DNA of 45,442 bases from Thermococcus sp. JdFR-02 (lineage in GTDB: Archaea; Methanobacteriota_B; Thermococci; Thermococcales; Thermococcaceae), in the NCBI GenBank assembly GCA_002009975.1, contig MTLP01000001.1, forward strand, positions 1 to 45,442. Direction: 5' to 3'. Positions 15,374 to 35,956 of this stretch are shown here, piece by piece; positions within the stretch are counted from its first letter, which is position 1; the number at the start of each line of letters is the position of its first letter. The notes under the pieces are model-generated. The model was not told the DNA's origin, searched no databases, and was given only the letters and a program-made list of their open reading frames with translations. The position numbers and the translations under genes are program-made.

Positions 15374-15782
15374 AAAGCATCCCTTCATTCTCATCATAAT
15401 AAGCTACGAGCCAAAACTCCTCTTCACTGCTTAAGGTTACATTGGAAGTATATAATGGGACGGTTGAATTCCTTACAATCCAAAAGCTCCTGCCATTTAC
15501 ACTCGCATTTACGGTGATTGTATTTTCTGTTCCATTGAATATTACCCTAATACTACCCCCATCCAAATTTGGAGCAATCTCTTTTATCTTATACCCTCTA
15601 CCAGTCGCATAAACCTTGCTCACATGATCAGAAAGCGATATTGAAAATATCTTAACATTAGTTAATACATCAAGTTCTTCAGAATGGGAAATTTCAGTAG
15701 TAGCTAAGTAGGTGAGGTTTGTAATAGTCACGATTATCATCAACACAGCAAACATCAAATCTATGCTAAGCTGTCCCCTCAT
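15354..15782 (-). CDS. class III signal peptide pilin-like protein
   Basis: 142 residues. MRGQLSIDLMFAVLMIIVTI has the class III core (G-Q-x-S-x-D), with Asp replacing the usual Glu, followed by the hydrophobic assembly helix. A compact beta-rich domain makes up the rest. The 3' end overlaps the next gene by 20 bases, and the upstream gene ends two bases before its ATG, so these are co-translated. Confidence 0.82.
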   Translation of the reverse strand: MRGQLSIDLMFAVLMIIVTITNLTYLATTEISHSEELDVLTNVKIFSISLSDHVSKVYATGRGYKIKEIAPNLDGGSIRVIFNGTENTITVNASVNGRSFWIVRNSTVPLYTSNVTLSSEEEFWLVAYYDENEGMLYVKVEG

Positions 15783-15784
15783 AT

Positions 15785-24163: not shown

Positions 24164-24697
24164 TCACTCCTTCCCAAACTTCTCTTTGTATAGCTCAATT
24201 GCCTTAAGGATTTCTTTCTTTGCAGTCTCGGCGTCCTCCCAACCTTCAACAATTATCTCTTTTCCTTGCAATTCCTTGTATCTTCTAAAGAAGTGGGCAA
24301 TCTCATCTAGGAATGCTTTTGGAACATCGCTTATGTCCTTCCAATCATTGAAGTAGGGATCCTCAACTGGAACTGCTAAAATCTTATAGTCTTTATCTCC
24401 GCTGTCTATCATTTTGAACAAGCCAATTGGTCTTGCCTCTATTAAAACTCCAGGATAAGTTGGTTCCCTCATAATTACCATGATATCAAAGGGATCGTCA
24501 TCGTCATACCATGTTCTTGGTATTATACCATAGTCAACTGGGTAGTGGAATGGGCTGTAAAGCACTCTATCAAGCTTTATTAATCCACTCTTTTTGTCAA
24601 GCTCATACTTGTTTCTGCTTCCCTTTGGAATTTCAATAAATGCATAGACGACTTCAGGAACCTCTGGTCCTGGCTCTAAGTCATGGAACGGATTCAT
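24164..24697 (-). CDS. ppa: inorganic pyrophosphatase (family I)
   Basis: 177 residues. It hydrolyses pyrophosphate to phosphate with Mg2+, pulling biosynthetic reactions forward. Active-site motifs are visible: the E/K/R set in [15 protein letters not shown], Tyr residues in PVDYGIIP, and the D-x-D-P-x-D signature in [11 protein letters not shown]. Length suits archaeal family I enzymes. I used the ATG at 24697, preceded by GAGGTGG; an upstream GTG lies in that site. TTTATAACC at about 24732-24740 on the minus strand is the likely TATA box. Confidence 0.97.
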
Positions 24698-24913
24698 CTC
24701 AACCACCTCATAGCGTTTTTAAAAGACAAGGTTATAAATTTACCTACGCTATCTGCATTTAGCTTTTAAGGTTAGCTTTTAAAGTTGTCGCCTCCTTGTT
24801 TATTTGAAATTATTATTGTCACTTAAATACTGACGTTTTCTGAATTCTTTTAATGTCAGCTGATTGTATTAGATACAAAGAGGATTAAATGAAAGCGTTT
24901 TGGAAAAATACAT
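24698..24913. other. AT-rich intergenic gap at the core/array boundary
   Basis: This 216-base stretch separates the core genome from the toxin-type array. It holds the ppa promoter on the minus strand and an 11-base direct repeat (TTAGCTTTTAA, twice at about 24760-24790). No gene, tRNA-like cloverleaf or strong inverted repeat was seen, so there is no evidence of an integration site. Confidence 0.5.
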
Positions 24914-25015
24914 CTAAAAATAACTCATGTTGAATACTAGACTGAGAGTATTTTTAACTTGTTCCCTTACTGGACCAATACTTTTTCTGTATTCACGATT
25001 CAGTATCTTTTCCAT
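24914..25015 (-). CDS. small overlapping reading frame MEKIL..., possible array remnant
   Basis: Starting inside the last codons of the 24993-25244 gene but in another frame, ATG at 25015 opens 33 codons (MEKILNREYRKSIGPVREQV and on to FNMSYF). A parallel frame exists at 25512-25562 (MEKILSREYRESMGDD), because both lie in a duplicated DNA segment. Expression is uncertain: no clear ribosome binding site is present. Confidence 0.25.
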   Translation of the reverse strand: MEKILNREYRKSIGPVREQVKNTLSLVFNMSYF

Positions 25016-25090
25016 GTGCAAGCCTCTCTTTCAGCTCTCCCTCCGTAAGATACTCAATTTTGTTTGAATCACCAATAATGTACGGTTCTC
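24973..25090. repeat. direct repeat, copy A (paired with 25522-25632)
   Basis: This segment covers the 3' end of copy 1 and its downstream frame. It aligns over its length with 25522-25632; the block from CAGTATCTTTTCCATGTGCA onward differs at only a few positions by eye. It shows a recent duplication of the small membrane gene. A more diverged third copy lies at about 25268-25342. Confidence 0.75.
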
Positions 25091-25244
25091 TATGTTTGTG
25101 TTGTATTTTCTGATCAATGTAAAATGCTGTTAGAAGTATTATAACACCAATAATTTCAAATGACCCAACTTTCTCGTTTTCGGATAAAGGAATGCATAAA
25201 AGAACATAAAAAATAAAGATTGCAATCCAATATTTTATTTTCAC
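24993..25244 (-). CDS. small membrane protein, array immunity-type, YIIGDSN family copy 1
   Basis: 83 residues: two hydrophobic segments at the N-terminus (IKYWIAIFIFYVLLCIPL and IGVIILLTAFYI), then a cytosolic tail with YIIGDSNKIEYLTEGELKE. The tail recurs in the genes at 25251 and 25540. It starts with GTG behind GGTGAGG, five bases after the preceding stop. I interpret it as an immunity-type gene at the distal end of the array; that function is inferred from context only. Confidence 0.7.
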   Translation of the reverse strand: MKIKYWIAIFIFYVLLCIPLSENEKVGSFEIIGVIILLTAFYIDQKIQHKHREPYIIGDSNKIEYLTEGELKERLAHGKDTES

Positions 25245-25250
25245 AATTCC

Positions 25251-25493
25251 TCACCTTATCTTTTTGTTTAGGATTTCTTCAAGCTCATCTTGAGTCAAAT
25301 AAACCACCTCATTCGAATCCCCAATAACATATGGAGTTTTTATGTCAAAACCACCCAAAATTATATACGCTATGATAAGTGGAGTGCATAGGAATACTGC
25401 AATTAAGGCAAAACCAACAATCAAAGACTCCATTATATAACCCGCTCCTAATGAAGTCATAAAATACAGAAAAAAACAAGAAAAAGAGAGCAT
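25251..25493 (-). CDS. small membrane protein, YIIGDSN family copy 2, possibly frameshifted start
   Basis: 80 residues with two membrane helices and the tail PYVIGDSNEVVYLTQDELEE. The ATG at 25493 has only a weak upstream site. Another ATG at 25512, directly after GGGGATGACTG, opens a different frame reading MKRRVKNALFFLFFSVFYDF. That resembles the basic-plus-hydrophobic N-terminus of copy 3 (MRRIKILLAISFLILL). So the gene may carry a frameshift between its true start and its body. Confidence 0.6.
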   Translation of the reverse strand: MLSFSCFFLYFMTSLGAGYIMESLIVGFALIAVFLCTPLIIAYIILGGFDIKTPYVIGDSNEVVYLTQDELEEILNKKIR

Positions 25494-25511
25494 TCTTAAC
25501 TCGTCTCTTCA

Positions 25512-25562
25512 TCAGTCATCCCCCATACTCTCCCTGTACTCACGACTCAATATCTTTTCCAT
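25512..25562 (-). CDS. 16-codon overlapping reading frame ending in SMGDD
   Basis: ATG at 25562 opens MEKILSREYRESMGDD in a frame different from the gene it overlaps. The end (GGGGATGACTGATG) supplies a GGGGATGA site directly before an ATG, as at other junctions of the array. It may be a relic of a toxin tip or a coupling peptide; expression is unproven. Confidence 0.25.
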   Translation of the reverse strand: MEKILSREYRESMGDD

Positions 25563-25632
25563 GTCCAAGCCTCTCTTTCAGCTCTTCCTCCGTAAGATAC
25601 TCAACCTTACTTGAATCGCCGATGATGTATGG
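25522..25632. repeat. direct repeat, copy B (paired with 24973-25090)
   Basis: Second copy of the segment encoding the IIGDS-x-KVEYLTEEELKERL tail and the overlapping MEKIL reading frame. Conservation continues past the stop codon of the membrane gene, so the unit duplicated is larger than the gene tail. Confidence 0.75.
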
Positions 25633-25776
25633 ATTTCTCTCTTTTCTTTTGTCTTTTTGCAATAGACCAACTACAATCATGCTGGCAACTAATATATAAA
25701 GTACAATTTCCCTGGTTTCGACTAAATATAATAAAATTAAAAAGGAAATTGCAAGTAGTATCTTAATTCTCCTCAT
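25540..25776 (-). CDS. small membrane protein, YIIGDSN family copy 3
   Basis: 78 residues: basic start MRRIKILLAISFLILLYLV, a second helix (IVLYILVASMIVVGLL), then the tail NPYIIGDSSKVEYLTEEELKE. GGTGAT with four-base spacing precedes the ATG and overlaps the stop of the amphipathic fragment 25782-25928, so the two are coupled. This is the expected layout of a toxin tip followed by its immunity protein. Confidence 0.75.
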   Translation of the reverse strand: MRRIKILLAISFLILLYLVETREIVLYILVASMIVVGLLQKDKRKERNPYIIGDSSKVEYLTEEELKERLGHGKDIES

Positions 25777-25781
25777 TTAAA

Positions 25782-25928
25782 TCACCCAAATAGCTGTTGT
25801 AATATTTCCTTGACAATCTTACTTCCATATTTGGCAATTAACGGCAAACTTTTTTGTCCTACCGATTTAACAAAAGGTATTATAGCTCCAGTGCTGAGCT
25901 CATATGAATTTGTTGATTTGTTGTTTTC
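25782..25928 (-). pseudogene. startless fragment encoding an amphipathic C-terminal tip
   Basis: An open stretch in another frame from the end of the 25880 gene codes for ENNKSTNSYELSTG followed by GAIIPFVKSVGQKSLPLIAK and YGSKIVKEILQQLFG. The last 35 residues form a cationic amphipathic helix pattern like membrane-active peptides. No ATG, GTG or TTG is placed for its translation as a unit. It directly precedes a small membrane gene. I interpret it as a silent toxin tip; the upstream part of the same frame, back to an ATG at 26063, is only a shadow of the overlapping gene. Confidence 0.5.
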
Positions 25929-26422
25929 AAAAGTTTTAATGCACCGAGGATGTGAATTGTGCCAAAGGCTAAAATTGCCAATGTTTGGAAAGGTGACTCT
26001 GTAAATGTCAGTAGCATCCCACTCCAGAACAAGAGGAGGTAAGTCATTATACTGCCTTTCCACTTACCTGTAAGCTGTACAATCAGATAAAACGCAACAC
26101 TCACCAAGACAATTCTTGATGAAAATGCTAAGTATATTAATGCTCCAAGGGTCAATCCATCCACCAGATGAAGAGGTCTTAATGCCTTGGCGAGTATTAG
26201 GAATCCAAAGATTACAAGCCAGCCCAATATGCTACTTTTTGTTCCTGCCATTATTGTACTCCAGAATAAGAGAACATGTGGCAAGCCCAAATAAAGATTC
26301 AGCAGATACTCAAGCCGCTTCTGCTCAAGGGCACTAAATGTAGCAAAGTATACTAACATAAAAACAAGCAACAACACAGGAATAAAAACTAAAAGAAAGG
26401 CAGGAATTTCCCCAAAATTCAT
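25880..26422 (-). CDS. polytopic membrane protein, array immunity-type
   Basis: 180 residues with about five or six membrane helices and short loops, and no recognisable family motif. Its ATG at 26422 overlaps the stop of the NNLIVGDES reading frame (TCATGA), and GGGGATGAG in that element serves as ribosome binding site. The position after a tip fragment suggests an immunity role. The 3' end is followed in another frame by the amphipathic fragment 25782-25928. Confidence 0.7.
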   Translation of the reverse strand: MNFGEIPAFLLVFIPVLLLVFMLVYFATFSALEQKRLEYLLNLYLGLPHVLLFWSTIMAGTKSSILGWLVIFGFLILAKALRPLHLVDGLTLGALIYLAFSSRIVLVSVAFYLIVQLTGKWKGSIMTYLLLFWSGMLLTFTESPFQTLAILAFGTIHILGALKLLKTTNQQIHMSSALEL

Positions 26423-26454
26423 GACTCATCCCCCACTATAAGGTTGTTGTCTCC
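26419..26454 (-). repeat. IIGD element (encodes GDNNLIVGDES)
   Basis: GGAGACAACAACCTTATAGT followed by GGGGGATGAGTCATGA. The reading frame is bounded upstream by TAG, so it is cut off from any gene, yet its sequence is kept. It ends at the start codon of the next membrane gene and supplies its ribosome binding site. Related copies lie at 26695, 26983, 27474, 27960, 28953, 29520 and 30894. Confidence 0.7.
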
Positions 26455-26476
26455 CTAGTTCTGTTATTTCCTTTTA

Positions 26477-26518
26477 GATTCATCTCAATCACGTAAGTAA
26501 ATCTTCTGTTGGTGTTAG
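26477..26518. repeat. direct repeat, copy A (paired with 26742-26808)
   Basis: Covers the 3' end of the 68-residue membrane gene and the spacer after it: AGATTCATCTCAATCACGTA then GTAAATCTTCTGTTGGTG. The same sequence recurs at 26742-26808, where about 22 extra bases are flanked by ACGTAA. In both copies a side frame encodes TYV-x-EMN-x-KG. Confidence 0.65.
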
Positions 26519-26695
26519 GAGATATGCTATGAATATTAAGCCTGCGAACACAATGAAAACAAAGTGAACTACGAATAAGATTTCTGAAAGAGTCATGTTT
26601 TCAAACAAATCCGTAGCTAGTGCTGCAACAAACCAAATAAAAATGTAAAGAATAAGGAGCCATCTAGAAAGGACTTTAGGTATCTTGACCTTCAT
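26489..26695 (-). CDS. two-helix membrane protein, array immunity-type, paralogue 1
   Basis: 68 residues: basic N-terminus MKVKIPKVLSRW, two membrane segments (LLILYIFIWFVAALATDLF and ILFVVHFVFIVFAGLIFIAYLL), then LTPTEDLLT. It is paralogous to the next gene upstream (26780), sharing the T/A-PTEDL end and DNA beyond the stop. The ATG at 26695 overlaps the stop of the NNLIVGDN frame and uses its GGGGGAT site. Confidence 0.7.
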   Translation of the reverse strand: MKVKIPKVLSRWLLILYIFIWFVAALATDLFENMTLSEILFVVHFVFIVFAGLIFIAYLLTPTEDLLT

Positions 26696-26724
26696 CAATT
26701 ATCCCCCACTATTAAGTTGTTACC
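26695..26724 (-). repeat. IIGD element (encodes GNNLIVGDN)
   Basis: GGTAACAACTTAATAGTGGG then GGATAATTGATG. The frame is closed upstream by TGA, leaving a nine-codon relic. It abuts the start of the 26489-26695 gene and provides its ribosome binding site. Confidence 0.7.
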
Positions 26725-26741
26725 TCATCTAATATTCCCTT

Positions 26742-26808
26742 TGGATTCATTTCACTCACGTAAGTTAGTTGATCAGGTTCTAACGTAAATCTTCTGTTGG
26801 TGCTAAAA
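26742..26808. repeat. direct repeat, copy B (paired with 26477-26518)
   Basis: Second copy of the junction repeat downstream of the 67-residue membrane gene. The side frame reads RRFTLEPDQLTYVSEMNPKG followed by ILDEVTT and a stop. The TYVSEMNPKG portion resembles FVIQMNPEPTG in the module at 27960-28451, suggesting both derive from the same toxin-type domain. Confidence 0.6.
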
Positions 26809-26983
26809 GATTCCAAATATACAAGAACACTAGTATTACTAGGAATGTTATAGTAGCTAATCCTAAAATCTCTTTAATACTGGCTTTCTCTGGCCATGCA
26901 AAAACAGAGAGAAAAAGAGAAATTATGTATATCTTGAGGAGATTTTTTGCATCTTTCAAGTCCGTACTCAAACTTAGAGGCAT
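26780..26983 (-). CDS. two-helix membrane protein, array immunity-type, paralogue 2
   Basis: 67 residues from the ATG at 26983: LKDAKNLLKIYIISLFLSVF, a second helix (ILGLATITFLVILVFLYIW) and the end NLLAPTEDLR. It is paralogous to 26489-26695. GGGTGATGA of the preceding IIGD element is its ribosome binding site, and start and stop codons overlap (TGATG). Confidence 0.7.
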   Translation of the reverse strand: MPLSLSTDLKDAKNLLKIYIISLFLSVFAWPEKASIKEILGLATITFLVILVFLYIWNLLAPTEDLR

Positions 26984-27033
26984 CACTCATCACCCACTAT
27001 TAAGTTGTTATTCACATTTGTGACGGCTTCTGT
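26983..27033 (-). pseudogene. startless tip remnant ending NNNLIVGDE
   Basis: A frame offset from the 3' end of the 27012 gene encodes TEAVTNVNNNLIVGDE and stops at the ATG of the next membrane gene. It is another copy of the IIGD element (AATAACAACTTAATAGTGGG then TGATGAGTGATG). No start codon is placed for it. Confidence 0.55.
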
Positions 27034-27461
27034 CCCACCTCTTTCCGTATTATGTGAGAGTAAAGTGCTAGGACTGAGTAGGCGAAGTACACCACACCTA
27101 ACGCAATCCCTACTTTCACTGAACCAAGCTTCCAGTAAGTCATGACAAACGACAGTGCACACAGGCCGATCAAATACATCACACACAGTGCTGGACTCTC
27201 TGAGATTTTTCCAAGCACTCTCCCATTTATTTTGTTCTTCGCTATTAACAGCATGGACGCAAACGCCCCAACATATCCAGCGAGTTCATAAACTAGACCA
27301 AGGACTAACAGGATAGTCATAACCGTTGCTAGAGAGAGCACAGGTATAGTTTCATTTTTCCAATTCTTGGAGACTCCTTCTGCTACAATCATATAACTTA
27401 CTGAAACAATGAAAATAAAGTTAAGGACAAAGTAAACTAGGAATATGTCCACTAGACCCAC
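27012..27461 (-). CDS. polytopic membrane protein, array immunity-type
   Basis: 149 residues from GTG at 27461, chosen because GGTGAT lies four bases upstream; a GTG at 27470 overlaps that site. About four membrane helices are visible (VDIFLVYFVLNFIFIVSVSY and others), with a basic end RKEVGQKPSQM. It follows the IIED-type element at 27474. No family recognised; immunity role inferred from the array pattern. Confidence 0.68.
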   Translation of the reverse strand: MGLVDIFLVYFVLNFIFIVSVSYMIVAEGVSKNWKNETIPVLSLATVMTILLVLGLVYELAGYVGAFASMLLIAKNKINGRVLGKISESPALCVMYLIGLCALSFVMTYWKLGSVKVGIALGVVYFAYSVLALYSHIIRKEVGQKPSQM

Positions 27462-27473
27462 TAATATCACCCC

Positions 27474-27548
27474 TTAATCCTCAATTATTAAGTTATTATC
27501 TCCTGAATCATTGGGAAGTTCCACGTCAAATCTTAAATTATTTAGTCC
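27474..27548 (-). pseudogene. startless tip remnant ending DNNLIIED
   Basis: The frame encodes GLNNLRFDVELPNDSGDNN then LIIED and a stop, overlapping the end of the 27538 gene in the +1 frame. The element (GGAGATAATAACTTAATAAT then TGAGGATTAAGGGGTGAT) lacks the usual GGD but keeps the NNLII core. It leads into the GTG start of the next membrane gene. Confidence 0.55.
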
Positions 27549-27945
27549 TTAGGAGCAGTGCCATATAAGCTCCGTGAATCAATGCTGAAGTCAATATGGC
27601 GAATTTCACTGGGAGTTCGAAGGTTGTTAGTATGTATGCACAGATCAATAACATGGTCAATATGTATAGAATGCTGTAGTTGAATTTTCTGGCTAGGATT
27701 CCTAAGGTCTTGTCTTCTAGGCTGGTCTTAGTCATTGCTATTCCATATGCTAGGAAGGCAAGGGCCCCAGCTCCTTCGTGAAGTTTGCCAAAGATTAAAG
27801 TTATTGTCAGCATTGTGGGGGCGGAGAGGATGGGAGTCCTGGTATCAACCTTGGACTTCGGAGTTCCAATCACCTGAAGGATAAAAATTAGGAGAATAAA
27901 GAAAGCATTTGCAGAGATATAGAATCCAACAATTCCAACTCCCAT
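27538..27945 (-). CDS. polytopic membrane protein, array immunity-type
   Basis: 135 residues with four hydrophobic helices, the first at the very N-terminus (VGIVGFYISANAFFILLIFI). GGTGATATTCG precedes the ATG, 12 bases after the stop of the toxin-type module at 27960, so it is the clear candidate partner for that module. No enzymatic motif. Confidence 0.7.
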   Translation of the reverse strand: MGVGIVGFYISANAFFILLIFILQVIGTPKSKVDTRTPILSAPTMLTITLIFGKLHEGAGALAFLAYGIAMTKTSLEDKTLGILARKFNYSILYILTMLLICAYILTTFELPVKFAILTSALIHGAYMALLLRTK

Positions 27946-27959
27946 CGAATATCACCTTG

Positions 27960-28451
27960 TTAGTTATCTCCGATAATGAGGTTGTTATCTCCTGGGTCGT
28001 CTGGAGGTATTGGTTCATTCATTACATGCCATACGAATTCTATATATAATACAAATATCCCTGCAATACCCCCAGCTGTTTTTGATGATACCTCAAGACC
28101 ATACCTCTCTGCAGATTTTTGAATTGCTTTGGTAAGACCTACCCATCCAGCTACTGTCTTGTAGTCACTAACTTTTCCCACTACCTCATTCTTAATTTTA
28201 ACAACTACACCGTATGCTCCCTTTACAACATCCCAAACCCCAGTTGGCTCTGGATTCATTTGTATTACGAACATTGTTGGGTTTTCTAGTTGATTTAGAT
28301 AAGCTTTGATTGCTATTGGTGTTCCTGGGTTCATGTCACTTAAATCCACTGGAATCCTCTCCTGTAATTCATCATTAATCGGAATCGTGAAAGTGAACGT
28401 TCCAGTGGAGTATGAGCTTAAACTCAAACTGCTCGGATTCGGAATTACCAA
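27960..28451 (-). CDS. silent toxin-type C-terminal module ending DNNLIIGDN
   Basis: An open frame of 163 codons without an ATG start; only TTG at 28451 is available and it lacks a good site. The first 70 residues are beta-rich (SSYSTGTFTFTIPI, then PTMFVIQMNPEPTG) like the Ig-type domains of secreted proteins. Next comes a helical region (VWDVVKGAYGVVVKIKNEVV), then a hydrophobic segment (GGIAGIFVLYIEFVWHVM) and PPDDPGDNNLIIGDN. It has no signal peptide. It looks like the 3' part of a secreted toxin that must be recombined onto an expressed gene to be made. Its partner is the membrane gene at 27538. Confidence 0.6.
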   Translation of the reverse strand: MVIPNPSSLSLSSYSTGTFTFTIPINDELQERIPVDLSDMNPGTPIAIKAYLNQLENPTMFVIQMNPEPTGVWDVVKGAYGVVVKIKNEVVGKVSDYKTVAGWVGLTKAIQKSAERYGLEVSSKTAGGIAGIFVLYIEFVWHVMNEPIPPDDPGDNNLIIGDN

Positions 28452-28951
28452 GTTATCACTTCTTGGATATTGCCTGTTTTATAATTATGTAAGTATCTGA
28501 TTGATAGGAGAGCATAAACTACCAGAGGAGGTATTATTCCGATTATGTGGCTGGTTCTTAGTTTTCTGCAGAGCAACTTTAGCATTCCCACTGACATTAG
28601 TCCAAGTATGAGAGTGTTCACGAGTATTATACGTTCCTTCAAGTTCATTGAGAACCTTATAAACCTCTCACGCTGGTATTTTAGTCTAGCTGCTAAAATC
28701 GATGCCAAAGCAGTTGTCATAAGGATTCCCATTATTGCCGGGATTGAGTTGTTTAATCTTATTGAGAGTAGCATTCCAAAAATTCCCATCAGTACCAGGT
28801 ACGGAAAAACAACAATATCCACACCAAACTCTGGCAACTTACTTTCCACTTCGCCAACCAAGGGACGCATCCCCTCGTACTTAAAAACCAACACTAAAAT
28901 GAGAAAAACAAAAACAAAAAGAACCATGCCAAAATATACCTCACACATCAT
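28445..28951 (-). CDS. polytopic membrane protein, array immunity-type
   Basis: 168 residues from the ATG at 28951, which follows GGGGATGG of the preceding element; the frame stays open upstream but has no site there. About five membrane helices are seen (VYFGMVLFVFVFLILVLVF and others). The 3' end overlaps the start of the module at 27960 by a few bases. A frame on the opposite strand of this gene is a shadow. Confidence 0.68.
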   Translation of the reverse strand: MMCEVYFGMVLFVFVFLILVLVFKYEGMRPLVGEVESKLPEFGVDIVVFPYLVLMGIFGMLLSIRLNNSIPAIMGILMTTALASILAARLKYQRERFIRFSMNLKERIILVNTLILGLMSVGMLKLLCRKLRTSHIIGIIPPLVVYALLSIRYLHNYKTGNIQEVITW

Positions 28952-28952
28952 T

Positions 28953-29048
28953 TCAACCACCATCCCCACAGATCGAGTTTCCGTCAGTTTTAGTGTAGTT
29001 GTGTAGAGAATCATAAGATACAGCTAAGTTGTCAGTCTCGTTGATCTT
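28953..29048 (-). pseudogene. startless tip remnant ending DGNSICGDGG
   Basis: A frame distinct from the 29024 gene encodes KINETDNLAVSYDSLHNYTK then TDGNSICGDGG. The end is a diverged IIGD element (GATGGAAACTCGATCTGTGG) whose GGGGATGG acts as ribosome binding site for the gene at 28951. The frame extends further upstream only as a shadow of the membrane gene. Confidence 0.5.
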
Positions 29049-29515
29049 TCTTGGAGTGTTAGTATTTTTAGTGTAATAATGTACTGTGATATATAAATTA
29101 GTGTGAATAATAGCAATGTTCTTGTCAAATTGCATTGTTCTCTTAGCTCCCAGTATACTTGAAGAGGAACTAGGTAAATAAAGAAGTACAAAACTGTGAC
29201 AATGACTTTTATTAGATTGTCTGAAATATGGAAGTGTCTTAGTAACAGGTATATCCCAAACCATATCATGAAAGATAGTAACAAATTCCAGACTACCGAG
29301 GCATCTGGAGTTAAGTAGTATGTAACATATGTAGAATTAATGTACACGAGAATTGGAAGAGATATCCCAAATGCTTTAAGCAACTTTGTATTTCCCTTTT
29401 CCCGCTTCCATTTTTCCGAATAGTACCAGATTGTTAAGATAAAACCAAAAATAAGTGAGAAATATAAGAAAGCAGACACAAATTGATACTCATGAAATAC
29501 TTCAAAGCACGACAC
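29024..29515 (-). CDS. polytopic membrane protein, array immunity-type
   Basis: 163 residues, about five membrane helices, starting with GTG at 29515 behind GGAGGTGATGAT. It begins directly after the stop of the large silent module at 29520, so it is the probable partner. The sequence has no conserved catalytic residues. Confidence 0.7.
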   Translation of the reverse strand: MSCFEVFHEYQFVSAFLYFSLIFGFILTIWYYSEKWKREKGNTKLLKAFGISLPILVYINSTYVTYYLTPDASVVWNLLLSFMIWFGIYLLLRHFHISDNLIKVIVTVLYFFIYLVPLQVYWELREQCNLTRTLLLFTLIYISQYIITLKILTLQERSTRLTT

Positions 29516-29519
29516 ATCA

Positions 29520-30461
29520 TCACCTCCTAACGGTGTCCCCTATAATTTCATTGTTATCCTGTTCTTGACCTCCGGGTATTGGTGGTCCAATGATACCCTT
29601 GTACATAAAATAAAAGAAGTCAATAGTTAAATGTTTCAAGGTAGAGAGGATAAATCCCACACCCTCTGGAATATCTGCAAGTATATGTATCTTTTCTCTT
29701 GTGTTTTCAGTCTCATAATAAGGAACTAAGGTTACATCATCCCCAATATAATTAGGTAGTACAGTTAAGTTTACATAGATCCTATAAGACATCCCATCCG
29801 GTTGTGTTAGGTACATGGTGTAAAATTCATCGCTAAATATATCTGTTGCCAAAGAACTATCAGCACTTATAACAAAAGAGAGAGTGTCTTCAACATTGCT
29901 CTGAGTTAAATTTGTTGCTCCAGTATCTATTCTTACACTTTTAGGTGGTCGATTAAACCTTGTTTGGGGATACAATGGATATTCTCCAAAAAATATCTCT
30001 CTGATGCTCACTTCCACTGAATTACTAGGTTCAAATATTGTACTCACATAGATCTTACATGAAATTATAGATTCAGTTCCAGGAGCACTCACTTGTACAA
30101 TTTTTGGAGTACATATCATCCAGGCTTCTATCTCTTCCTGTGAATTCACCGTTATCACTTTTTCATCCTCCTCCTGACCGTTAACTACGAGGTAAAACTT
30201 GTAAGTGCCCGGATTTGCGAAAGTGAAGTCAAACCAGTCCTGGTATTCCTCAAGAGGATCAAAGTCAACCTCAGCCTCCTTGACCTTAATAACACTGTGC
30301 CACACATCATCTGGCGAAGTGTAAACATAATACACCCTAACTGGAATAGAGTACCTTGGGGCGTTTTCATCATTCCTAACAGTAAGAGTGAACCTCACCT
30401 TAGCACCCACTGAGACATCACCACTAACTATACTGTTTTTGCTTTCTCTCCAACGCTTCAA
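29520..30461 (-). CDS. large silent toxin-type module with Ig-like domain, ending DNNEIIGDTVRR
   Basis: 313 codons without an ATG (TTG at 30461, overlapping the upstream membrane gene by 38 bases). Residues about 15-105 form a CARDB-like Ig domain (SVGAKVRFTLTVRND, then FANPGTYKFYLVVNGQEED), close in pattern to the repeats of the 1002-residue protein (NEPVEFTFTITNY, FNTPGERTYYAKVDG). A second beta-rich domain follows. The end has a hydrophobic tip (VGFILSTLKHLTIDFFYFMY) and then PIPGGQEQDNNEIIGD. No signal peptide is present, so as it stands it would not be secreted. Confidence 0.62.
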   Translation of the reverse strand: MKRWRESKNSIVSGDVSVGAKVRFTLTVRNDENAPRYSIPVRVYYVYTSPDDVWHSVIKVKEAEVDFDPLEEYQDWFDFTFANPGTYKFYLVVNGQEEDEKVITVNSQEEIEAWMICTPKIVQVSAPGTESIISCKIYVSTIFEPSNSVEVSIREIFFGEYPLYPQTRFNRPPKSVRIDTGATNLTQSNVEDTLSFVISADSSLATDIFSDEFYTMYLTQPDGMSYRIYVNLTVLPNYIGDDVTLVPYYETENTREKIHILADIPEGVGFILSTLKHLTIDFFYFMYKGIIGPPIPGGQEQDNNEIIGDTVRR

Positions 30462-30888
30462 TTTCCTTAATAGCCTGCTGAAGCATCCTCAAGGACTTCC
30501 AATAAAGAATGAATGTAAGCACTGCCACTATCCAGACAAGAATTTCTTTTATTCCTGCTAGGAAAATCATCACTAAAACCATGAGTGCTGGAATGTGAAT
30601 ATGTTTCCATTTCTGTCTTAGATAATCGACGTCTAAAATGCCCCTTACAACTCTATAAATCAAGTAAATTGCGAGAATAGAAGCAAGCACTGGTGCAGCT
30701 CCTTTTCCTTGGGCTGCTGAAACATTACTGAATGCATATAGTAAAGAGAACCACGGGGCTAGTGTCATTAAAGTAACACTACCTTCATAATTCCCCCTCA
30801 TGCTCTGAAGTACCCATGTAATTATTAGAATAACAACATAAAATAGTGAGATTGCAAAAAATACAAAAAAAGGAAACTCTCCGTACAT
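30424..30888 (-). CDS. polytopic membrane protein, array immunity-type
   Basis: 154 residues with about four or five membrane helices (FFVFFAISLFYVVILIITWV at the N-terminus) and a basic coiled end (EIEALERKQKQYS). GGAGGG in the preceding tip fragment precedes the ATG at 30888. It would be the partner of the 30894-31061 fragment. Confidence 0.7.
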   Translation of the reverse strand: MYGEFPFFVFFAISLFYVVILIITWVLQSMRGNYEGSVTLMTLAPWFSLLYAFSNVSAAQGKGAAPVLASILAIYLIYRVVRGILDVDYLRQKWKHIHIPALMVLVMIFLAGIKEILVWIVAVLTFILYWKSLRMLQQAIKEIEALERKQKQYS

Positions 30889-30893
30889 GCCCG

Positions 30894-31061
30894 CTACCCT
30901 CCTATGACTTTGTTTCCATCAGTTTCTACAAAATCTTCTGAATACTTCCACAACCACCACACCTCTTTTGCAATTCTAACTAACTTTTCAATTGCAATCC
31001 AGATAGCATTTTTAGGGGTTTCTATGACAGATTTATATTCCTCCTTTTTGCTCTTGTTGAG
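30894..31061 (-). pseudogene. startless 55-codon toxin-tip fragment ending DGNKVIGG
   Basis: Open for 55 codons between TAA and TAG with no usable start: LNKSKKEEYKSVIETPKNAI, then WIAIEKLVRIAKEVWWLWKY, then SEDFVETDGNKVIGG. The middle is a Trp-rich cationic amphipathic helix. It overlaps the end of the 31033 gene in the +1 frame. Its last codons (GATGGAAACAAAGTCATAGG) are an IIGD element and provide GGAGGG for the next gene. It reads as intact protein but cannot be expressed on its own. Confidence 0.55.
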
Positions 31062-31413
31062 TTAGATACCTTAAACTATTTCTAATGTGGATAAGTTCTT
31101 GTCTGATTTGCCATCTCTCAATTAAAGAGTACAACAACACGAGAGCGACAAAGTCTCTTAGACTTCCACTCATAGCAAAAGATATTGCAATAATCCCTAA
31201 CAAAATATACCTAACTACTAATTCTCCGGGATCCTGGTCAATATTTCCAAGATTAAGCTCCTTTTTAAGACTTTGAATTTCATTTTTAACCGGATAAAAA
31301 GCTGAGAGGAATGCAAATAGAATAAAGGATAAAAAATGAATCTCCTGTTTACTAAAAGCATATGTCAGTAGTGATAACACTGAAATCCCTATTGAGATAA
31401 TATCAAACTTCAT
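31033..31413 (-). CDS. membrane protein, array immunity-type
   Basis: 126 residues from the ATG at 31413; GGAGGGTGG lies upstream. About four hydrophobic helices in pairs (IISIGISVLSLLTYAF, FLSFILFAFLSAFY, then YILLGIIAISFAM) and a charged end. It follows the orphan module at 31435 by about 20 bases and is its probable partner. Confidence 0.7.
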   Translation of the reverse strand: MKFDIISIGISVLSLLTYAFSKQEIHFLSFILFAFLSAFYPVKNEIQSLKKELNLGNIDQDPGELVVRYILLGIIAISFAMSGSLRDFVALVLLYSLIERWQIRQELIHIRNSLRYLTQQEQKGGI

Positions 31414-31434
31414 ATGTACCACCCTCCAAAATTG

Positions 31435-31998
31435 TCACTTTCCAGATATATCTTTCCAAATACCTTGACCAATATTTCTAACAAACAGAAATACTTGGAT
31501 AGCTGTTTTTACTGGTTCTGGTATTGGGGTCATTTCGACCATCACAGTTCCAATGTATTCTACTGGAGCATATGCCAATCCAAGGGGTGCAACTATCATT
31601 AATCCACCTTTTTTAATACCTCCTTCGGCATCCTCTCTCCAGTACTCACTTCCTTCATACCTTGCTATTATAACGTTGTCTAGGATTTTATCCCCGAGAT
31701 TTTCTATCCACAAGGTTATGCTTAAGTAGTGTGGTGTGTCTGGTCTGTCCCTGGTATAGTAACAATTCCCGCCAGAACAACTCCAGTGAGTCGTATAAGG
31801 TGTCAAGTCTCTGACGTCATCTAATCCTAAGGCACTTGCCAATCTTTCATCCAAAGGAACCAATGATGGATTACAATTCATGCTTGCAATAACGTTCCCC
31901 ACGGGTATCACTTCCACCCTAACCTCGCTCCAGTGCTCTTTCCCTTTTTCATTTGGCTTTCCGTTATAGTTGTTAAGTGTAAATAAAAGCCAATCCAA
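31435..31998 (-). CDS. orphan toxin-type C-terminal module homologous to the junction of the 1002-residue protein
   Basis: 187 codons with only TTG available as start and no signal peptide. It begins LFTLNNYNGKPNEKGKEHW then SEVRVEVIP, which matches LFLDNYDGEPNGIGEEHW then DEVRVIVHP of the 1002-residue protein just before its tip. After this the sequences diverge. The remainder has a Cys-containing segment (HWSCSGGNCYY), a beta-rich region and a hydrophobic end (VKTAIQVFLFVRNIGQGIW). This is the layout of an orphan cassette that can replace the expressed tip by recombination. Confidence 0.68.
   Translation of the reverse strand: MDWLLFTLNNYNGKPNEKGKEHWSEVRVEVIPVGNVIASMNCNPSLVPLDERLASALGLDDVRDLTPYTTHWSCSGGNCYYTRDRPDTPHYLSITLWIENLGDKILDNVIIARYEGSEYWREDAEGGIKKGGLMIVAPLGLAYAPVEYIGTVMVEMTPIPEPVKTAIQVFLFVRNIGQGIWKDISGK
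31915..31985. repeat. recombination-type homology block, silent copy
   Basis: DNA encoding LNNYNGKPNEKGKEHWSEVRV. It aligns without gaps to 32948-33018 in the large gene (DNYDGEPNGIGEEHWDEVRV), including a shared CCAGTGCTCTT core on the plus strand. The similarity stops soon after, marking a cassette junction. Confidence 0.7.
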
Positions 31999-32011
31999 AG
32001 GGCACCTACTA

Positions 32012-32356
32012 TCACTTGGTTATATTCGATTTATCCTCGGGCCTTCTTGTTAGTATTGCAAGAATTCCTAAGCCTGTTGAGATGCCCCACAACGTTCCAA
32101 GGGAGAGAGCCAGAATTAGATTATCGGTTACTGCCCATGCTGGAAGGACATAGAGTGGAAAGCTAACTACAATGCCTATAATGGCTTTCTCCTTTAGGGG
32201 CAACGCTTTCTTCCAGTAAAATGTAATGAACCCGATAAGATATGCAGTAATCAGGAACTGTGGGAGTAAATATTTCGCAAGATAAAACGCGCTCGCTACC
32301 GCGATAAGAAACATAAAAAAGGCAGGAAGTACAAATTTGTTCTTGGTTATCGGCAT
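32012..32356 (-). CDS. four-helix membrane protein, immunity candidate of the expressed toxin
   Basis: 114 residues from the ATG at 32356, chosen because GGTGAG lies four bases upstream (that site contains the stop of the large gene). Four membrane helices are seen (FVLPAFFMFLIAVASAFYLA to LGTLWGISTGLGILAIL) with a charged tail RRPEDKSNITK. It lies immediately after the complete toxin-type gene. Protection against the adjacent tip is inferred from this position. Confidence 0.72.
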   Translation of the reverse strand: MPITKNKFVLPAFFMFLIAVASAFYLAKYLLPQFLITAYLIGFITFYWKKALPLKEKAIIGIVVSFPLYVLPAWAVTDNLILALSLGTLWGISTGLGILAILTRRPEDKSNITK

Positions 32357-32361
32357 TGTAC

Positions 32362-35300
32362 TCACCTCCAGCTCCATGCTCGTCTGATAAAGTCAGCGAT
32401 TACTGGTGCCAACTCTCCAAGTCCCTTTAGAACCTTTCCTGCACGTATGAGCTTTGCTGAAACAATAATTGCTTTAACTTCACCACCAATTAATACAGCA
32501 TTCGTTCCAACGTCCACTATTACGTCACTGTTGTCCTGCTTTATATTCACCACATCGAAGCCTGTGAAAGTAATGTCTTCTGCGTTCTGTGGAGAGATTA
32601 TGTATTCTATTGATACTCCAACGTAAGTTCCAAACAAGTCTTTCTCAAGTGTTATTAATCCCGTATGGGCAGTGTTTTTGAAAACTATTTCTGCAGTTTG
32701 GGAAGGTTCCACCTTAGCTGGATATTCAATCATCCATGCAGATTCTAATGATTCCATGAACTCTTGATTCTCAATTGACCAGTTTTCAACACTTACAGAG
32801 TTTATACTAACATCATTTTGAGTAGGATTGTAAATAATAGCCCTACAAACCAATTTAGCCTTGTATTCTATGCCGTTCCAGTTAAATTCGGGATCATTGC
32901 ATTCGAATGCTACTTGTTGTAGTTCTGTTTCGTTGCTTGGGTGTACTATCACTCTTACTTCGTCCCAGTGCTCTTCGCCTATTCCGTTAGGCTCACCATC
33001 GTAGTTGTCGAGGAAGAGGGTGTAAGTGTGGGTTCCAACGCCAGAAACTTGCAGGCTGAATGAAGTTAAAGTGTAATCCTGAGCACTCGCTGGTAATGTT
33101 GTACTAACCCTCTTGATCACTGCACCATCCTCATCCACAACATAACCAAACAATGAATAAGCATTGCCCAAGTAATTCGAAGCTTTAACCGTAAAAACCA
33201 CAGTACCACCACCCACAATCTCCGTTGGCATTGCCTCCAAACTAACACCAAACTGAGCATTCGCCGGCACTACATTTACAGTGCCCTCCCTGTAAGACGC
33301 AGTCCCCCAAGGCACCGAAACCATAACCCCCCACACATATCTTCCCACTTTTTCCGGAGTCCAGTAAAGCTTAAACGTTGCACTCTTTCCACCATTCAAT
33401 GAAACAGACTCACTATAAACTTCAGAACCATTAACTTTTAACTTTAGTGTGAAACTCTTAGACGAGCTGTAAGTATTCTTAACTTTGACCCTAAATTCTG
33501 CAGTGTCACCAACTCTCGGTGGATTTGGATAAAGTTCAACGCTTTCGATTGTTAAGTTGCCGGAGTCTGTACTACTGTCATCGTCTTCCACCTTTATTGT
33601 TCCCACTGCATATGTTGTCCCATCAACCTTTGCGTAGTAGGTTCTTTCGCCTGGTGTATTGAAAGTTAACTGCAGAGTCTTGGTTTTAGTTTCGCCAGCT
33701 GGAACTGTGAGTGTATCCTCTTTAGATTTCCCGCCAGCAGTGACCAGCAAATTGAACGTTTTATCACTCGTCATGTAATTGGTTATCGTGAAGGTAAACT
33801 CTACTGGTTCATTAACTTTCACAATAGCCTTTGAAACGGAAACTTGAGAATCGAACAGCTGAATTGTTTTTGAGACTGTTTTTATAACCATTGCCTCCTC
33901 ACCACAGCCTGCTGGAGCGCTTAAAACTTCCTCTCCACCGGGAACACTGTTTATATTGTTGCACCATTTTGTGTAGGTGACTTTTATGGTTTTGCTGAGC
34001 GTTATCTCCTGAGCATTGCTTGGAATGTCCTCAGTGAAGTAACTTCCCACGGGCAAAGTTATTGCTCTACTTTCCCCAGCTCCCAAGTCAAATGGTCCGT
34101 ATTCTTTATTCCCATCAATGTAAATGTTGATGTTTGTTGCCTGAGCATTCTCTGCCCTAACAGTGATCTGAACCTTATAGGAAGCTTTATCTGGAGTTAT
34201 TGAATTAGCAATAATTTCACCATTGATGTACAGAACAGTCTCTCCAGTGTTTGGATCTAAGGCTTCTTGGGTAAGTGGATCTTCTAGGTTTTCACCAGTG
34301 GTGAAAGTGCTTGGAGGCTTAATTGGTGGGAATGGCTTGATAGGACTGTCACATGAATAGCTTATCATCGAAGAAACTTTAACTGCGATTAATGCTTCCT
34401 TCAACTCTGCAATCTTTCCGTTTAAAATTAATTTTAACTCCTCATTATCATTCCCAAAGTCTTTTGCTAACAGTAGCGTTTTTATTTGTGAAGCCTTTTC
34501 GTAAGATTCTAAAGCCTTCCAGTAATATTGTACTTTGTATGTCTCATAGCATATAACTCCATTCTTAATCTTACTTCTTTTTTCTGTGCCACCATCTAAG
34601 ATCAAAATACCGTTAGAACTGTAAGTACTCCCAGAACTACTAATCACTCCATAAATTTTATCCTTAAGCCTTTGAATTGTCGTCAATTGCTCATCAAGCG
34701 TTCCATTATAGTAAGCTTTGTAAAAATTAGTCCACTCCCCCTGAAGTTGGGGCAAAATTATATTCTCTCCTTCGGGAATGCTAGCATTCTCCGCATTACT
34801 CCACTTCCATTTCTCCAGTGCCCATGTTTCGTAGTAGTTGTATTTGAAGCCAACCTCAATGAAAGCTAAGCTGAAATCTTCCAAAAACTTGGTTAAATTA
34901 AAATCTTCATTAATTTGATCAGAATTCTCAATAATGTACTGTTCTAAGGCTTTAATCTCATCATCACTCCAGCCCTGTTCCTTCAAAGCCTGGATTGTCT
35001 CCTCAGGCAAACCATTTTGAGAAATATTTTGAGCCAGCTCCCTAAGCTCCTCTGCAGTATAGTAAGTCTTAACTCCCGAATTTTTAATCTCCTCCAGACT
35101 CTGCCATATTAATGCTGAAATTTGAGCAGCATTTTGTGAACCATTTTGAGAATTCTTGATTAGCTCCTGAGCTAAATTTTCAATTTGATTTGGGTCATTA
35201 GTATTGTTCAGCTGAACTATTAATTCTGCTTCTCTGTTTAAGATTTTCCAGAATTCTTCATAGGCTTGGTTATCTAATGCTGAGACATAAATACTCTGAT

Positions 35301-35370
35301 TTTCTGCTACAATAAAACTTAAACTAATCATTAGATATATTATGACTAAGCTTACTATTTTTCTCATCAT
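32362..35370 (-). CDS. secreted multidomain protein, expressed polymorphic-toxin candidate
   Basis: 1002 residues. A signal peptide covers residues 1-22 (IVSLVIIYLMISLSFIVAEN). A helical, Asn/Gln/Glu-rich region of about 320 residues follows, with a Pro-rich linker (PIKPFPPIKPPSTF). Several Ig-like/CARDB domains come next (NEPVEFTFTITNY, RVGDTAEFRVKVKN, VGGGTVVFTVKASN). Near residue 790 is the junction block DNYDGEPNGIGEEHWDEVRV, then a final beta domain. The tip is DVGTNAVLIGGEVKAIIVSA, KLIRAGKVLKGLGELAPVIA, DFIRRAWSWR. The long stalk and variable short tip are typical of polymorphic toxins; a membrane-active tip is inferred. It has its own promoter. Confidence 0.78.
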   Translation of the reverse strand: MMRKIVSLVIIYLMISLSFIVAENQSIYVSALDNQAYEEFWKILNREAELIVQLNNTNDPNQIENLAQELIKNSQNGSQNAAQISALIWQSLEEIKNSGVKTYYTAEELRELAQNISQNGLPEETIQALKEQGWSDDEIKALEQYIIENSDQINEDFNLTKFLEDFSLAFIEVGFKYNYYETWALEKWKWSNAENASIPEGENIILPQLQGEWTNFYKAYYNGTLDEQLTTIQRLKDKIYGVISSSGSTYSSNGILILDGGTEKRSKIKNGVICYETYKVQYYWKALESYEKASQIKTLLLAKDFGNDNEELKLILNGKIAELKEALIAVKVSSMISYSCDSPIKPFPPIKPPSTFTTGENLEDPLTQEALDPNTGETVLYINGEIIANSITPDKASYKVQITVRAENAQATNINIYIDGNKEYGPFDLGAGESRAITLPVGSYFTEDIPSNAQEITLSKTIKVTYTKWCNNINSVPGGEEVLSAPAGCGEEAMVIKTVSKTIQLFDSQVSVSKAIVKVNEPVEFTFTITNYMTSDKTFNLLVTAGGKSKEDTLTVPAGETKTKTLQLTFNTPGERTYYAKVDGTTYAVGTIKVEDDDSSTDSGNLTIESVELYPNPPRVGDTAEFRVKVKNTYSSSKSFTLKLKVNGSEVYSESVSLNGGKSATFKLYWTPEKVGRYVWGVMVSVPWGTASYREGTVNVVPANAQFGVSLEAMPTEIVGGGTVVFTVKASNYLGNAYSLFGYVVDEDGAVIKRVSTTLPASAQDYTLTSFSLQVSGVGTHTYTLFLDNYDGEPNGIGEEHWDEVRVIVHPSNETELQQVAFECNDPEFNWNGIEYKAKLVCRAIIYNPTQNDVSINSVSVENWSIENQEFMESLESAWMIEYPAKVEPSQTAEIVFKNTAHTGLITLEKDLFGTYVGVSIEYIISPQNAEDITFTGFDVVNIKQDNSDVIVDVGTNAVLIGGEVKAIIVSAKLIRAGKVLKGLGELAPVIADFIRRAWSWR
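32948..33018. repeat. recombination-type homology block, expressed copy
   Basis: DNA for LFLDNYDGEPNGIGEEHW then DEVRV in the large secreted protein. It matches the start of the orphan module at 31915-31985. A crossover here would swap the 210-residue C-terminal part of the expressed protein. Confidence 0.7.
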
Positions 35371-35513: not shown

Positions 35514-35927
35514 TCACTTCAGGATACCTTCCAAAACCAAAATCTTTTTCTGTCTCAAATACACAACGGGAATCCCCCTTTCTCTAAGCTTTTTCTTTAA
35601 CCCCTTATCATTAGTGCACACTATGACATTTGATCTTTTTAGTGCAAACTCATAAATCTGCTCATCAGTAGGCTTTTCTCCAAATTTTCCGATATCTATT
35701 ATTTCAAACCTCTCAATTAACTGTCTCGCCATTCTAATGGCAACTAAATCTTTCCCTCGTGATTTCTTTTCTATAAGGTCTAACTCTTTAATCACAACAT
35801 TAGGAATTACAACTTTGAAATTAACGTCAAGAACTCTCTTTAGTTCGCCAATTATATCAACACCAAACTGACCGGGAATCAGGAGAAAATTCGTGTCCGG
35901 AACAACAAGATAGCCTTTCTTTTCCAT
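35514..35927 (-). CDS. PIN domain protein (VapC9/FCF1-like)
   Basis: 137 residues from the ATG at 35927, behind GGTGAG at four-base spacing. PIN nuclease acidic residues are visible: VPDTNFLL near the start, VIKELDLIE mid-protein and CTNDKGLKKKL near the end, followed by the strand PVVYLRQKK. This form, encoded next to aIF2-gamma, is conserved in Thermococcales and may be a single-strand RNA nuclease of rRNA processing rather than a toxin. No antitoxin gene is adjacent, which supports that view. Confidence 0.9.
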   Translation of the reverse strand: MEKKGYLVVPDTNFLLIPGQFGVDIIGELKRVLDVNFKVVIPNVVIKELDLIEKKSRGKDLVAIRMARQLIERFEIIDIGKFGEKPTDEQIYEFALKRSNVIVCTNDKGLKKKLRERGIPVVYLRQKKILVLEGILK

Positions 35928-35956
35928 ATAACTCACCAAAAAAGAAGTAAGAAATG

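What the first reader, a model, noticed from the sequence alone, without database searches (positions are those of the whole stretch)
24914..35370. Polymorphic toxin locus with an array of silent C-terminal cassettes and membrane immunity genes
One gene (32362-35370) has a signal peptide, a long stalk of Ig-like domains and a short hydrophobic tip, and is followed by a four-helix membrane protein. Downstream on the same strand, fragments without signal peptides or ATG starts (31435, 30894, 29520, 28953, 27960, 27474, 26983, 25782) alternate with unrelated small membrane proteins. This is the architecture of an expressed toxin/immunity pair plus orphan tip/immunity cassettes known from bacterial polymorphic toxins. 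Seen: order, missing starts, repeated pattern. Inferred: toxin and immunity functions. Since every partner is a polytopic membrane protein and the tips are amphipathic, the targets are probably membranes.
Basis: partly seen in the sequence, partly recalled or inferred. Interest (0 to 1): 0.92.

Follow-up and report, generated by a model that had tools for sequence, protein, structure and literature searches.

The report
Archaeal toxin locus with swappable tips
This stretch of a heat-loving archaeon's genome is one example of a published but functionally unexplained gene module (VARTIG), and comparison with about 50 related genomes shows that its interchangeable protein tips travel together with one matching small membrane protein each, which is what a weapon-plus-antidote system predicts, probably one that attacks cell membranes.

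Summary
On the minus strand, window 24.9-35.4 kb carries a secreted Ig-stalk protein of 1002 aa, an overlapping small membrane gene, then tip fragments and tip stumps alternating with 12 more small membrane genes. This is a VARTIG module (Makarova et al. 2021, PMC8416519), so the kind is known; its function is not.

I tested the toxin/immunity reading on 67 regions from about 50 Thermococcaceae genomes (178 tip-neighbour pairs). Tips at least 65% identical between species are followed by a homologous membrane gene in 147/149 comparisons; unrelated tips in 61/14,707. The gene after that one shows little linkage. The first silent tip here is joined to the stalk in G008, and the expressed tip here is silent in G003 and G069. 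In 36 of 48 stalk genes the tip has a silent counterpart elsewhere, with nucleotide-level crossovers and some within-locus homology. Several membrane genes here keep only a short stump of a tip that is intact in relatives: immunity retained after toxin loss.

Membrane targeting is supported by polytopic partners, glycine-zipper tips and one colicin-K-immunity-like partner family, but remains inferred. Toxicity, immunity and silence of the fragments are unproven.

The parts
32362..35370 (-). VARTIG stalk protein, 1002 aa: hydrophobic signal-like N-terminus, all-helical N-domain (about aa 28-260), CARDB/Ig stalk, last Ig domain plus C-terminal helical tip (tip0)
   Evidence: N-domain found only in Thermococcaceae
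32365..32979 (-). Variable C-terminal region (tip0) from about the conserved EHW motif of the last shared Ig domain: Ig-like sandwich plus two C-terminal helices
   Evidence: A2 alignment, AF2 model of low confidence in the helices; silent in G003 (86% over 59 aa) and G069 (70%)
32012..32356 (-). mem0: partner membrane protein of tip0 (predicted immunity); four hydrophobic stretches by eye
   Evidence: Homologues only in loci holding tip0-class tips; follows the tip0 relative directly in G069 (60%) and G003, second gene in G017, G061, G077 and G008
31435..31998 (-). tip1: orphan tip beginning inside the last Ig domain; 72% identical to the stalk over 64 nt
   Evidence: joined to the stalk in G008 (tip 66%, partner 75%), orphan in G004 (93%/93%) and G003 (79%/85%)
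31033..31422 (-). mem1: partner of tip1
   Evidence: dN/dS 0.14 against G004
30894..31035 (-). Remnant tip ending DGNKVIGG
   Evidence: partial match in G004
30424..30888 (-). mem2: membrane gene
   Evidence: no homologue in the fetched loci
29520..30461 (-). tip3: orphan Ig plus tip, ends DNNEIIGDTVRR
   Evidence: first part 59% identical to a G004 fragment
29024..29515 (-). mem3: membrane gene after tip3, 4 predicted TM segments
   Evidence: no homologue in the fetched loci
28953..28990 (-). Remnant tip end DGNSICGDGG before mem4
   Evidence: longer tip (103-aa frame, ends DGNLICGDGG) before the mem4 homologue in G004
28445..28951 (-). mem4: membrane gene
   Evidence: 47% in G004
27960..28451 (-). 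tip5: orphan tip, ends DNNLIIGDN
   Evidence: class joined to the stalk in G062 (L066)
27538..27945 (-). mem5: partner of tip5
   Evidence: 31% in G007, after a related tip
27474..27503 (-). Tip stump DNNLIIED before mem6
   Evidence: stump plus mem6 89.6% identical over 509 nt to the tip end plus mem6 of G004; longer tip present in G004 and G014
27012..27464 (-). mem6: membrane gene whose tip is reduced to a stump here
   Evidence: 86% in G014 and 91% in G004, each directly after a longer tip
26983..27015 (-). Tip stump NNNLIVGDE before mem7
26780..26983 (-). mem7: small membrane gene
   Evidence: 64-67% in G002 and G082, there after a mem9 homologue
26694..26720 (-).
26489..26695 (-). mem8: small membrane gene
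   Evidence: 59% in G024 and G036 after intact tips (299- and 189-aa frames)
26420..26452 (-).
25880..26422 (-). mem9: membrane gene
   Evidence: homologue in G082 after an intact tip frame (143 aa) with the same ending
25782..25925 (-). Short tip fragment (tip9) overlapped by the 3' end of mem9; coding limits approximate
24993..25776 (-). mem10, mem11, mem12: three related small membrane genes with shared tail PY[IV]IGDSn.[IV].YLT
   Evidence: mem12 homologues follow intact orphan tips in G004 and G105 and a stalk-joined tip in G112
24164..24706 (-). Flanking gene: inorganic pyrophosphatase (assigned from the sequence)
   Evidence: Adjacent to the other flank, about 80 nt apart, in G009, G018 and G022
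35514..35960 (-). Flanking gene: PIN-domain protein (assigned from the sequence), next to eIF2 gamma

Best explanation
A VARTIG module working as a surface- or secretion-delivered polymorphic toxin system. The stalk protein is exported, the conserved helical N-domain and Ig stalk present it, and the exchangeable C-terminal tip (last Ig domain plus 60-90 aa of hydrophobic, amphipathic or glycine-zipper helices) inserts into the membrane of related cells. The membrane gene directly behind the tip encodes its specific immunity protein. Downstream cassettes are alternative tips with their immunity genes. Recombination in the shared last Ig domains joins another cassette to the stalk or inserts a new one, pushing the old pair downstream, where the tip can decay while the immunity gene is kept as protection against relatives. 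Shown: order, co-inheritance, exchange between joined and orphan state, stumps, island insertion, breakpoints. Inferred: toxicity, immunity, membrane insertion, delivery, silence of orphan tips, direction of each rearrangement.
For: Co-inheritance rises with tip identity: 0.4% of pairs with unrelated tips have homologous partners, 48% at 45-55% tip identity, 75% at 55-65%, 98% at 65-80%, 65/65 at 80% or more. It is specific to the next gene: 241/311 against 23/310 for the gene after it, shuffle mean about 7; near-complete genomes only 58/66 against 13/3,316. 36/48 stalk-joined tips have an orphan counterpart with a homologous partner in another species, and 60/130 orphans a joined one. G104's joined tip plus partner is 94.8% identical over 1,794 nt to an orphan cassette of G012, and the G104 stalk continues directly into it, while G012 has another tip plus partner in between. 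Stalks of G063, G082 and G033 are 92-97% identical over about 2,400 nt and then carry unrelated tips. Within-locus arms: 390 nt at 94.6% (G003), 164 nt at 99.4% (G085), 245 nt at 94.7% (G036). Partners: 163/192 have at least 2 predicted TM segments against 63/395 control ORFs. Glycine-zipper matches above Pfam cutoffs in two tips; colicin-K-immunity match in two related partners, below cutoff. Stumps here match tips that are longer or intact in relatives. Empty site in three relatives.
Against: No toxicity or immunity measured here or in the literature found. Only 48 of 192 tips hold a clear hydrophobic segment in their last 70 aa, and the tip helices in the AF2 model are of low confidence. 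The N-domain matches no solved fold, so delivery is unexplained. Tip0 relatives at 50-58% identity have a different first partner, with the mem0 homologue as second gene. Purifying selection on orphan tips sits uneasily with lasting silence unless re-joining is frequent. Tips and partners could also be a ligand and its matched receptor.
Confidence: 0.75

Rival explanations
1. Self/non-self recognition or adhesion: tip and membrane protein are an allelic ligand and its matched receptor (hypothesis iii of Makarova et al. 2021); no killing is involved.
For: Polymorphic matched pairs and a surface Ig stalk fit equally well.
Against: Several membrane genes are kept behind decayed tips and many partner-like genes lack a called tip (185 of 382 full-length matches, a set that still contains some stalk fragments); a receptor without its ligand gene has less reason to be kept than an immunity gene. 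Glycine-zipper tips and a colicin-immunity-like partner favour toxins.
Confidence: 0.14
2. Innate-immunity or complement-like capture protein whose variable tip binds invaders (hypothesis ii of Makarova et al. 2021).
For: The published comparison found Ig-region similarity to thioester proteins.
Against: Does not explain one-to-one co-inheritance of each tip with one polytopic membrane gene; no thioester domain was found in the stalk.
Confidence: 0.05
3. A decaying island: the downstream fragments are neutral pseudogene debris of past exchanges, and tip and partner stay together only because they are physically close.
For: Stumps, frameshifted stalks and missing clear starts.
Against: The next gene out, nearly as close, shows little linkage (23/310); partners and orphan tips show dN/dS of about 0.1-0.5 in all but one of the measurable comparisons of each kind.
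Confidence: 0.06

Closest known systems
VARTIG module of Thermococcales (Makarova et al. 2021, PMC8416519)
   Same: Large Ig/CARDB protein first in the operon, variable C-terminus, smaller downstream proteins matching that C-terminus, membrane genes, D[ND]NxxxG[GD] ending, restricted to Thermococcales
   Different: The paper saw no recombination within loci, found no toxin candidate, named partner association for two tip branches as examples, and read the ending as a possible sortase signal. Here: quantified partner specificity, within-locus arms, empty site, stumps with retained partners, glycine-zipper tips, and the GG/GD codons doubling as the partner's ribosome-binding site (53 of 60 motif tips)
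CDI orphan cdiA-CT/cdiI arrays and Rhs (PMC3150448)
   Same: Orphan tip/immunity pairs behind the main gene, mostly without start signals, sharing an upstream homology stretch; orphans joined to full-length genes in other strains
   Different: No CdiB partner, no VENN or Rhs repeats; unrelated Ig stalk; archaeal host; partners mostly membrane proteins
CDI ionophore toxins with polymorphic immunity proteins (PMC11630599)
   Same: Membrane-acting tips with highly polymorphic cognate immunity proteins
   Different: Five-helix ionophore domain plus entry domain; the tips here are shorter and no sequence relation was found or specifically tested
MafB silent cassettes of Neisseria (PMC4287609)
   Same: One full-length gene followed by C-terminal cassettes, some without start codon, each followed by an immunity gene
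   Different: Toxin types and delivery unrelated
T6SS orphan immunity arrays of Vibrio cholerae (PMC5361080)
   Same: New effector-immunity pair displaces the old effector while the old immunity gene is kept downstream
   Different: Injection machine; no such machine was seen in this locus
Cdz system of Caulobacter (PMC5380434) and TelE (PMC10434224)
   Same: Glycine-zipper toxins; small transmembrane immunity protein (CdzI) in the first, membrane-damaging activity in the second
   Different: Other secretion routes; no sequence relation tested

Membership tests
VARTIG | Large secreted protein with CARDB/Ig domains at the 5' end of the operon | tested here: met
   PF07705 at 45 bits against 22.7; N-domain shared with 50 other Thermococcaceae genomes. 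arCOG07710 assignment itself not run
VARTIG | Hypervariable C-terminal region while the rest is conserved | tested here: met
[quoted passage not shown]
VARTIG | C-terminal D[ND]NxxxG[GD] motif | tested here: met
   In two orphan tips and several stumps; absent from the expressed tip; the paper reports it in 31 proteins, not in all
VARTIG | Two conserved cysteines in the distal Ig domain | tested here: met
   One invariant and one nearly invariant Cys in the tip0-class alignment
VARTIG | GN motif between N-domain and Ig region | not tested
   Not examined
VARTIG | Found in Thermococcales only | tested here: met
   N-domain in 51 of 115 genomes of the class, all in this family
Polymorphic toxin system (Zhang et al. 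2012, PMC3482391) | Variable C-terminal domain exchanged by recombination with stand-alone cassettes | tested here: met
Polymorphic toxin system (Zhang et al. 2012, PMC3482391) | Each C-terminal domain coupled to a specific adjacent gene | tested here: met
Polymorphic toxin system (Zhang et al. 2012, PMC3482391) | C-terminal domain is a toxin | tested here: inconclusive
   Glycine-zipper families above cutoff in two tips, weak Bacteriocin_IIc matches in two, nothing in most
Polymorphic toxin system (Zhang et al. 2012, PMC3482391) | Adjacent gene gives immunity | not testable with these tools
   Only a sub-threshold colicin-K-immunity match: 25.1 and 21.8 bits against 27
CDI (CdiA/CdiI) | CdiB two-partner transporter and CdiA stalk | tested here: not met
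   Pfam finds CARDB/Ig in the stalk and no CdiA-type domain; no transporter-like neighbour seen among the ORFs

The most novel reading that the evidence does not exclude
VARTIG is an archaeal polymorphic toxin system whose whole tip repertoire (dozens of classes) acts on the membrane and is countered by cognate polytopic membrane proteins, diversified by recombination in the last Ig domain and leaving arrays of retained immunity genes. The absence of nuclease tips, the published objection to a toxin role, would then follow from its target.
Probability: 0.5. Interest if true: 0.78.

Novelty: new member of a known kind. Interest (0 to 1): 0.6.

Why it matters
The 2021 description left three hypotheses open (toxin system, innate immunity, self-recognition) and named the lack of any toxin domain as the main objection to the first. 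The one-to-one coupling of tip and next gene, the exchange between joined and orphan state and the retained membrane genes behind decayed tips favour the toxin/immunity reading. They give named tip/partner pairs for a direct test in genetically tractable Thermococcales, where weapons between cells are hardly known.

Tried and rejected
Fold search of the N-domain model against PDB: no match at E <= 0.001. Sequence profiles of the N-domain and tip against PDB: only weak hits to designed or unrelated proteins. Tip model against PDB: matches to beta-sandwich domains only; the helices are too uncertain. NCBIfam and PADLOC on tips, NCBIfam on partners: nothing convincing. The idea that the DNNxxxGG ending is only a ribosome-binding site: the GG/GD codons fit, but Asp/Asn codons vary freely (GAC 36, GAT 22), so that part is kept as protein. 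Start-codon test of silence: not decisive. The named genome scan gave three relatives only, two titled Thermococcus sp. and one Thermococcaceae archaeon. Two apparent own-stalk arms at 100% (L070, L092) come from split stalks and were discounted. Some entries in the partner list are stalk fragments; the cleaned set (at least one predicted TM segment) is used. The tip0 query was out of frame and was redone in later calls; likewise the mem0 TM count was out of frame and is not used. The 2019 archaeal toxin survey (10.1128/mBio.00715-19) is not held in the paper library, so its content was not checked.
Full report
What is there. The minus strand from 35,370 to 24,993 holds a co-directional series between two housekeeping genes (assigned from sequence: a PIN-domain protein next to eIF2 gamma, and inorganic pyrophosphatase). 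The first gene encodes a 1002-aa protein with a hydrophobic N-terminus and CARDB/Ig domains. Its last codons abut or overlap the next gene, a small protein with four hydrophobic stretches. Downstream follow four tip ORFs or fragments (starting at 31,998; 30,461; 28,451; about 25,925), several tip remnants or stumps, and 12 more small membrane genes.

It is a known kind. The layout, the CARDB stalk, the orphan C-termini, the membrane genes and the D[ND]NxxxG[GD] endings are those of VARTIG, described in Thermococcales in 2021 (PMC8416519). No later functional work on it was found in the paper library: the other hits were an editorial and an unrelated use of the word. The paper offered three hypotheses, said no recombination within loci was detected, and named the absence of toxin domains as the main caveat to a toxin role. 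The stalk's N-domain occurs in 51 of the 94 Thermococcaceae genomes held and in none of the other 21 genomes searched in its class.

An island with an empty site. In G009, G018 and G022 the two flanking genes lie about 80 nt apart; in G004, G014 and the window they are 14.3, 7.3 and 10.8 kb apart with a VARTIG module between them. G014 and G004 carry different tips and repertoires at this same site.

Tips and next genes are inherited together. I fetched 67 regions and collected 178 tip-partner pairs, 48 joined to a stalk and 130 orphan. Between different genomes, homologous partners follow 0.4% of unrelated tips, 48% of tips at 45-55% identity, 75% at 55-65%, 98% at 65-80% and 65 of 65 at 80% or more. 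At 45% or more the count is 241/311, with shuffles averaging 7 and never above 19. For the gene one further on it is 23/310. Restricted to 22 genomes in one to four contigs it is 58/66 against 13/3,316. Conversely, of 174 pairs of partners at least 45% identical, 164 follow homologous tips. Pairs are not independent, because species share ancestry and clusters are uneven, so the shuffles give a direction rather than an exact probability. The graded relation and the sharp fall one gene on are the stronger arguments.

Joined and orphan forms interchange. 36 of 48 joined tips have an orphan counterpart with a homologous partner in another species, and 60 of 130 orphans have a joined one. For this window: tip1 and mem1, orphan here, form the stalk end and first partner in G008 (66% and 75%); tip0, joined to the stalk here, is orphan in G003 (86% over 59 aa, in a disrupted frame) and in G069 (70%, partner 60%); the 27,960 tip has a joined relative in G062 with a weakly similar partner.

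Nucleotide evidence of exchange. In G104 the stalk runs into a tip and partner that are 94.8% identical over 1,794 nt to an orphan cassette of G012; G012 has its own tip plus partner between stalk and cassette, so the two arrangements differ by one inserted or deleted cassette. Stalks of G063, G082 and G033 are 92-97% identical for about 2,400 nt and then end in three unrelated tips. The joined tip of G082 is identical over its last 205 nt to an orphan of G064. Within single loci, orphan arms match their own stalk better than any foreign stalk in G003 (390 nt, 94.6%), G036 (245 nt, 94.7%), G110 (166 nt, 95.8%), G085 (164 nt, 99.4%) and G069 (310 nt, 90.3%). That is evidence for exchange within loci, which the 2021 paper did not see. 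In the window itself the arm is only 64 nt at 72%.

Immunity genes outlive tips. In the window mem6, mem8 and mem9 are preceded by frames of 24, 9 and 11 codons ending in DNNLI-type stumps; their relatives directly follow longer or intact tips with the same kind of ending: mem6 in G014 and G004, mem8 in G024 and G036, mem9 in G082. For mem6 the window stump plus gene is 89.6% identical over 509 nt to the tip end plus gene of G004. This is the pattern described for T6SS immunity arrays in Vibrio cholerae (PMC5361080) and proposed for CDI orphan modules (PMC3150448).

What the tips may do. Partners are polytopic: 163 of 192 have at least two predicted segments, against 63 of 395 opposite-strand ORFs (simple hydropathy). 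One tip class matches a glycine-zipper family above the Pfam cutoff (L079, 26.5 bits against 25), as does a second class (L094, 26.3 against 24.2); two more tips match Bacteriocin_IIc weakly. Two related partners match colicin-K immunity just below its cutoff (25.1 and 21.8 bits against 27; E 2.6e-5 and 2.8e-4). The AF2 model of tip0 gives an Ig-like sandwich followed by two helices, the latter at low confidence. Glycine-zipper toxins with a transmembrane immunity protein (Cdz, PMC5380434), a membrane-damaging glycine-zipper toxin (TelE, PMC10434224) and CDI ionophores with polymorphic immunity proteins (PMC11630599) are functional precedents from bacteria; no common origin is claimed.

The C-terminal motif. 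In 53 of 60 motif-bearing tips a ribosome-binding-like sequence for the partner starts inside the last tip codons, so the conserved Gly-Gly/Gly-Asp doubles as the partner's likely translation signal. The Asp-Asn-Asn part varies at silent positions and is therefore kept as protein. The sortase idea of the 2021 paper is neither proved nor excluded.

Limits. Nothing here measures toxicity, immunity or expression. Whether orphan tips are silent is open, and most comparisons show purifying selection on them. How the stalk leaves the cell and reaches a target is unknown; the helical N-domain has no structural match. Several genomes are draft or metagenome assemblies, but the result holds in near-complete genomes alone.

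Noticed in passing
24993-25776: Three related small membrane proteins share the tail PY[IV]IGDSn.[IV].YLT..EL; the same family appears to partner several different tip clusters in other genomes (partner cluster 0).
   Followed up: partly
17073-18164: A tubulin/FtsZ-like protein (motif GGGTGAGGTP, judged from sequence) lies between a prenyltransferase-repeat-like secreted protein (18169-20421) and a run of secreted or pilin-like proteins (8921-16414).
   Followed up: no
L031 (G004), L032 (G014) against the window: Three species carry different VARTIG modules at one chromosomal site that is empty in three relatives: a natural series for dating cassette exchange.
   Followed up: partly
L039, L045, L057: Tip0-class tips at 50-55% identity are followed by another membrane gene first and a mem0 homologue second, perhaps two immunity genes for one tip class.
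   Followed up: no
L053, L067, L070, L092 and others: Several stalk genes are frameshifted or split, so some species may have lost the expressed copy while keeping the array.
   Followed up: no
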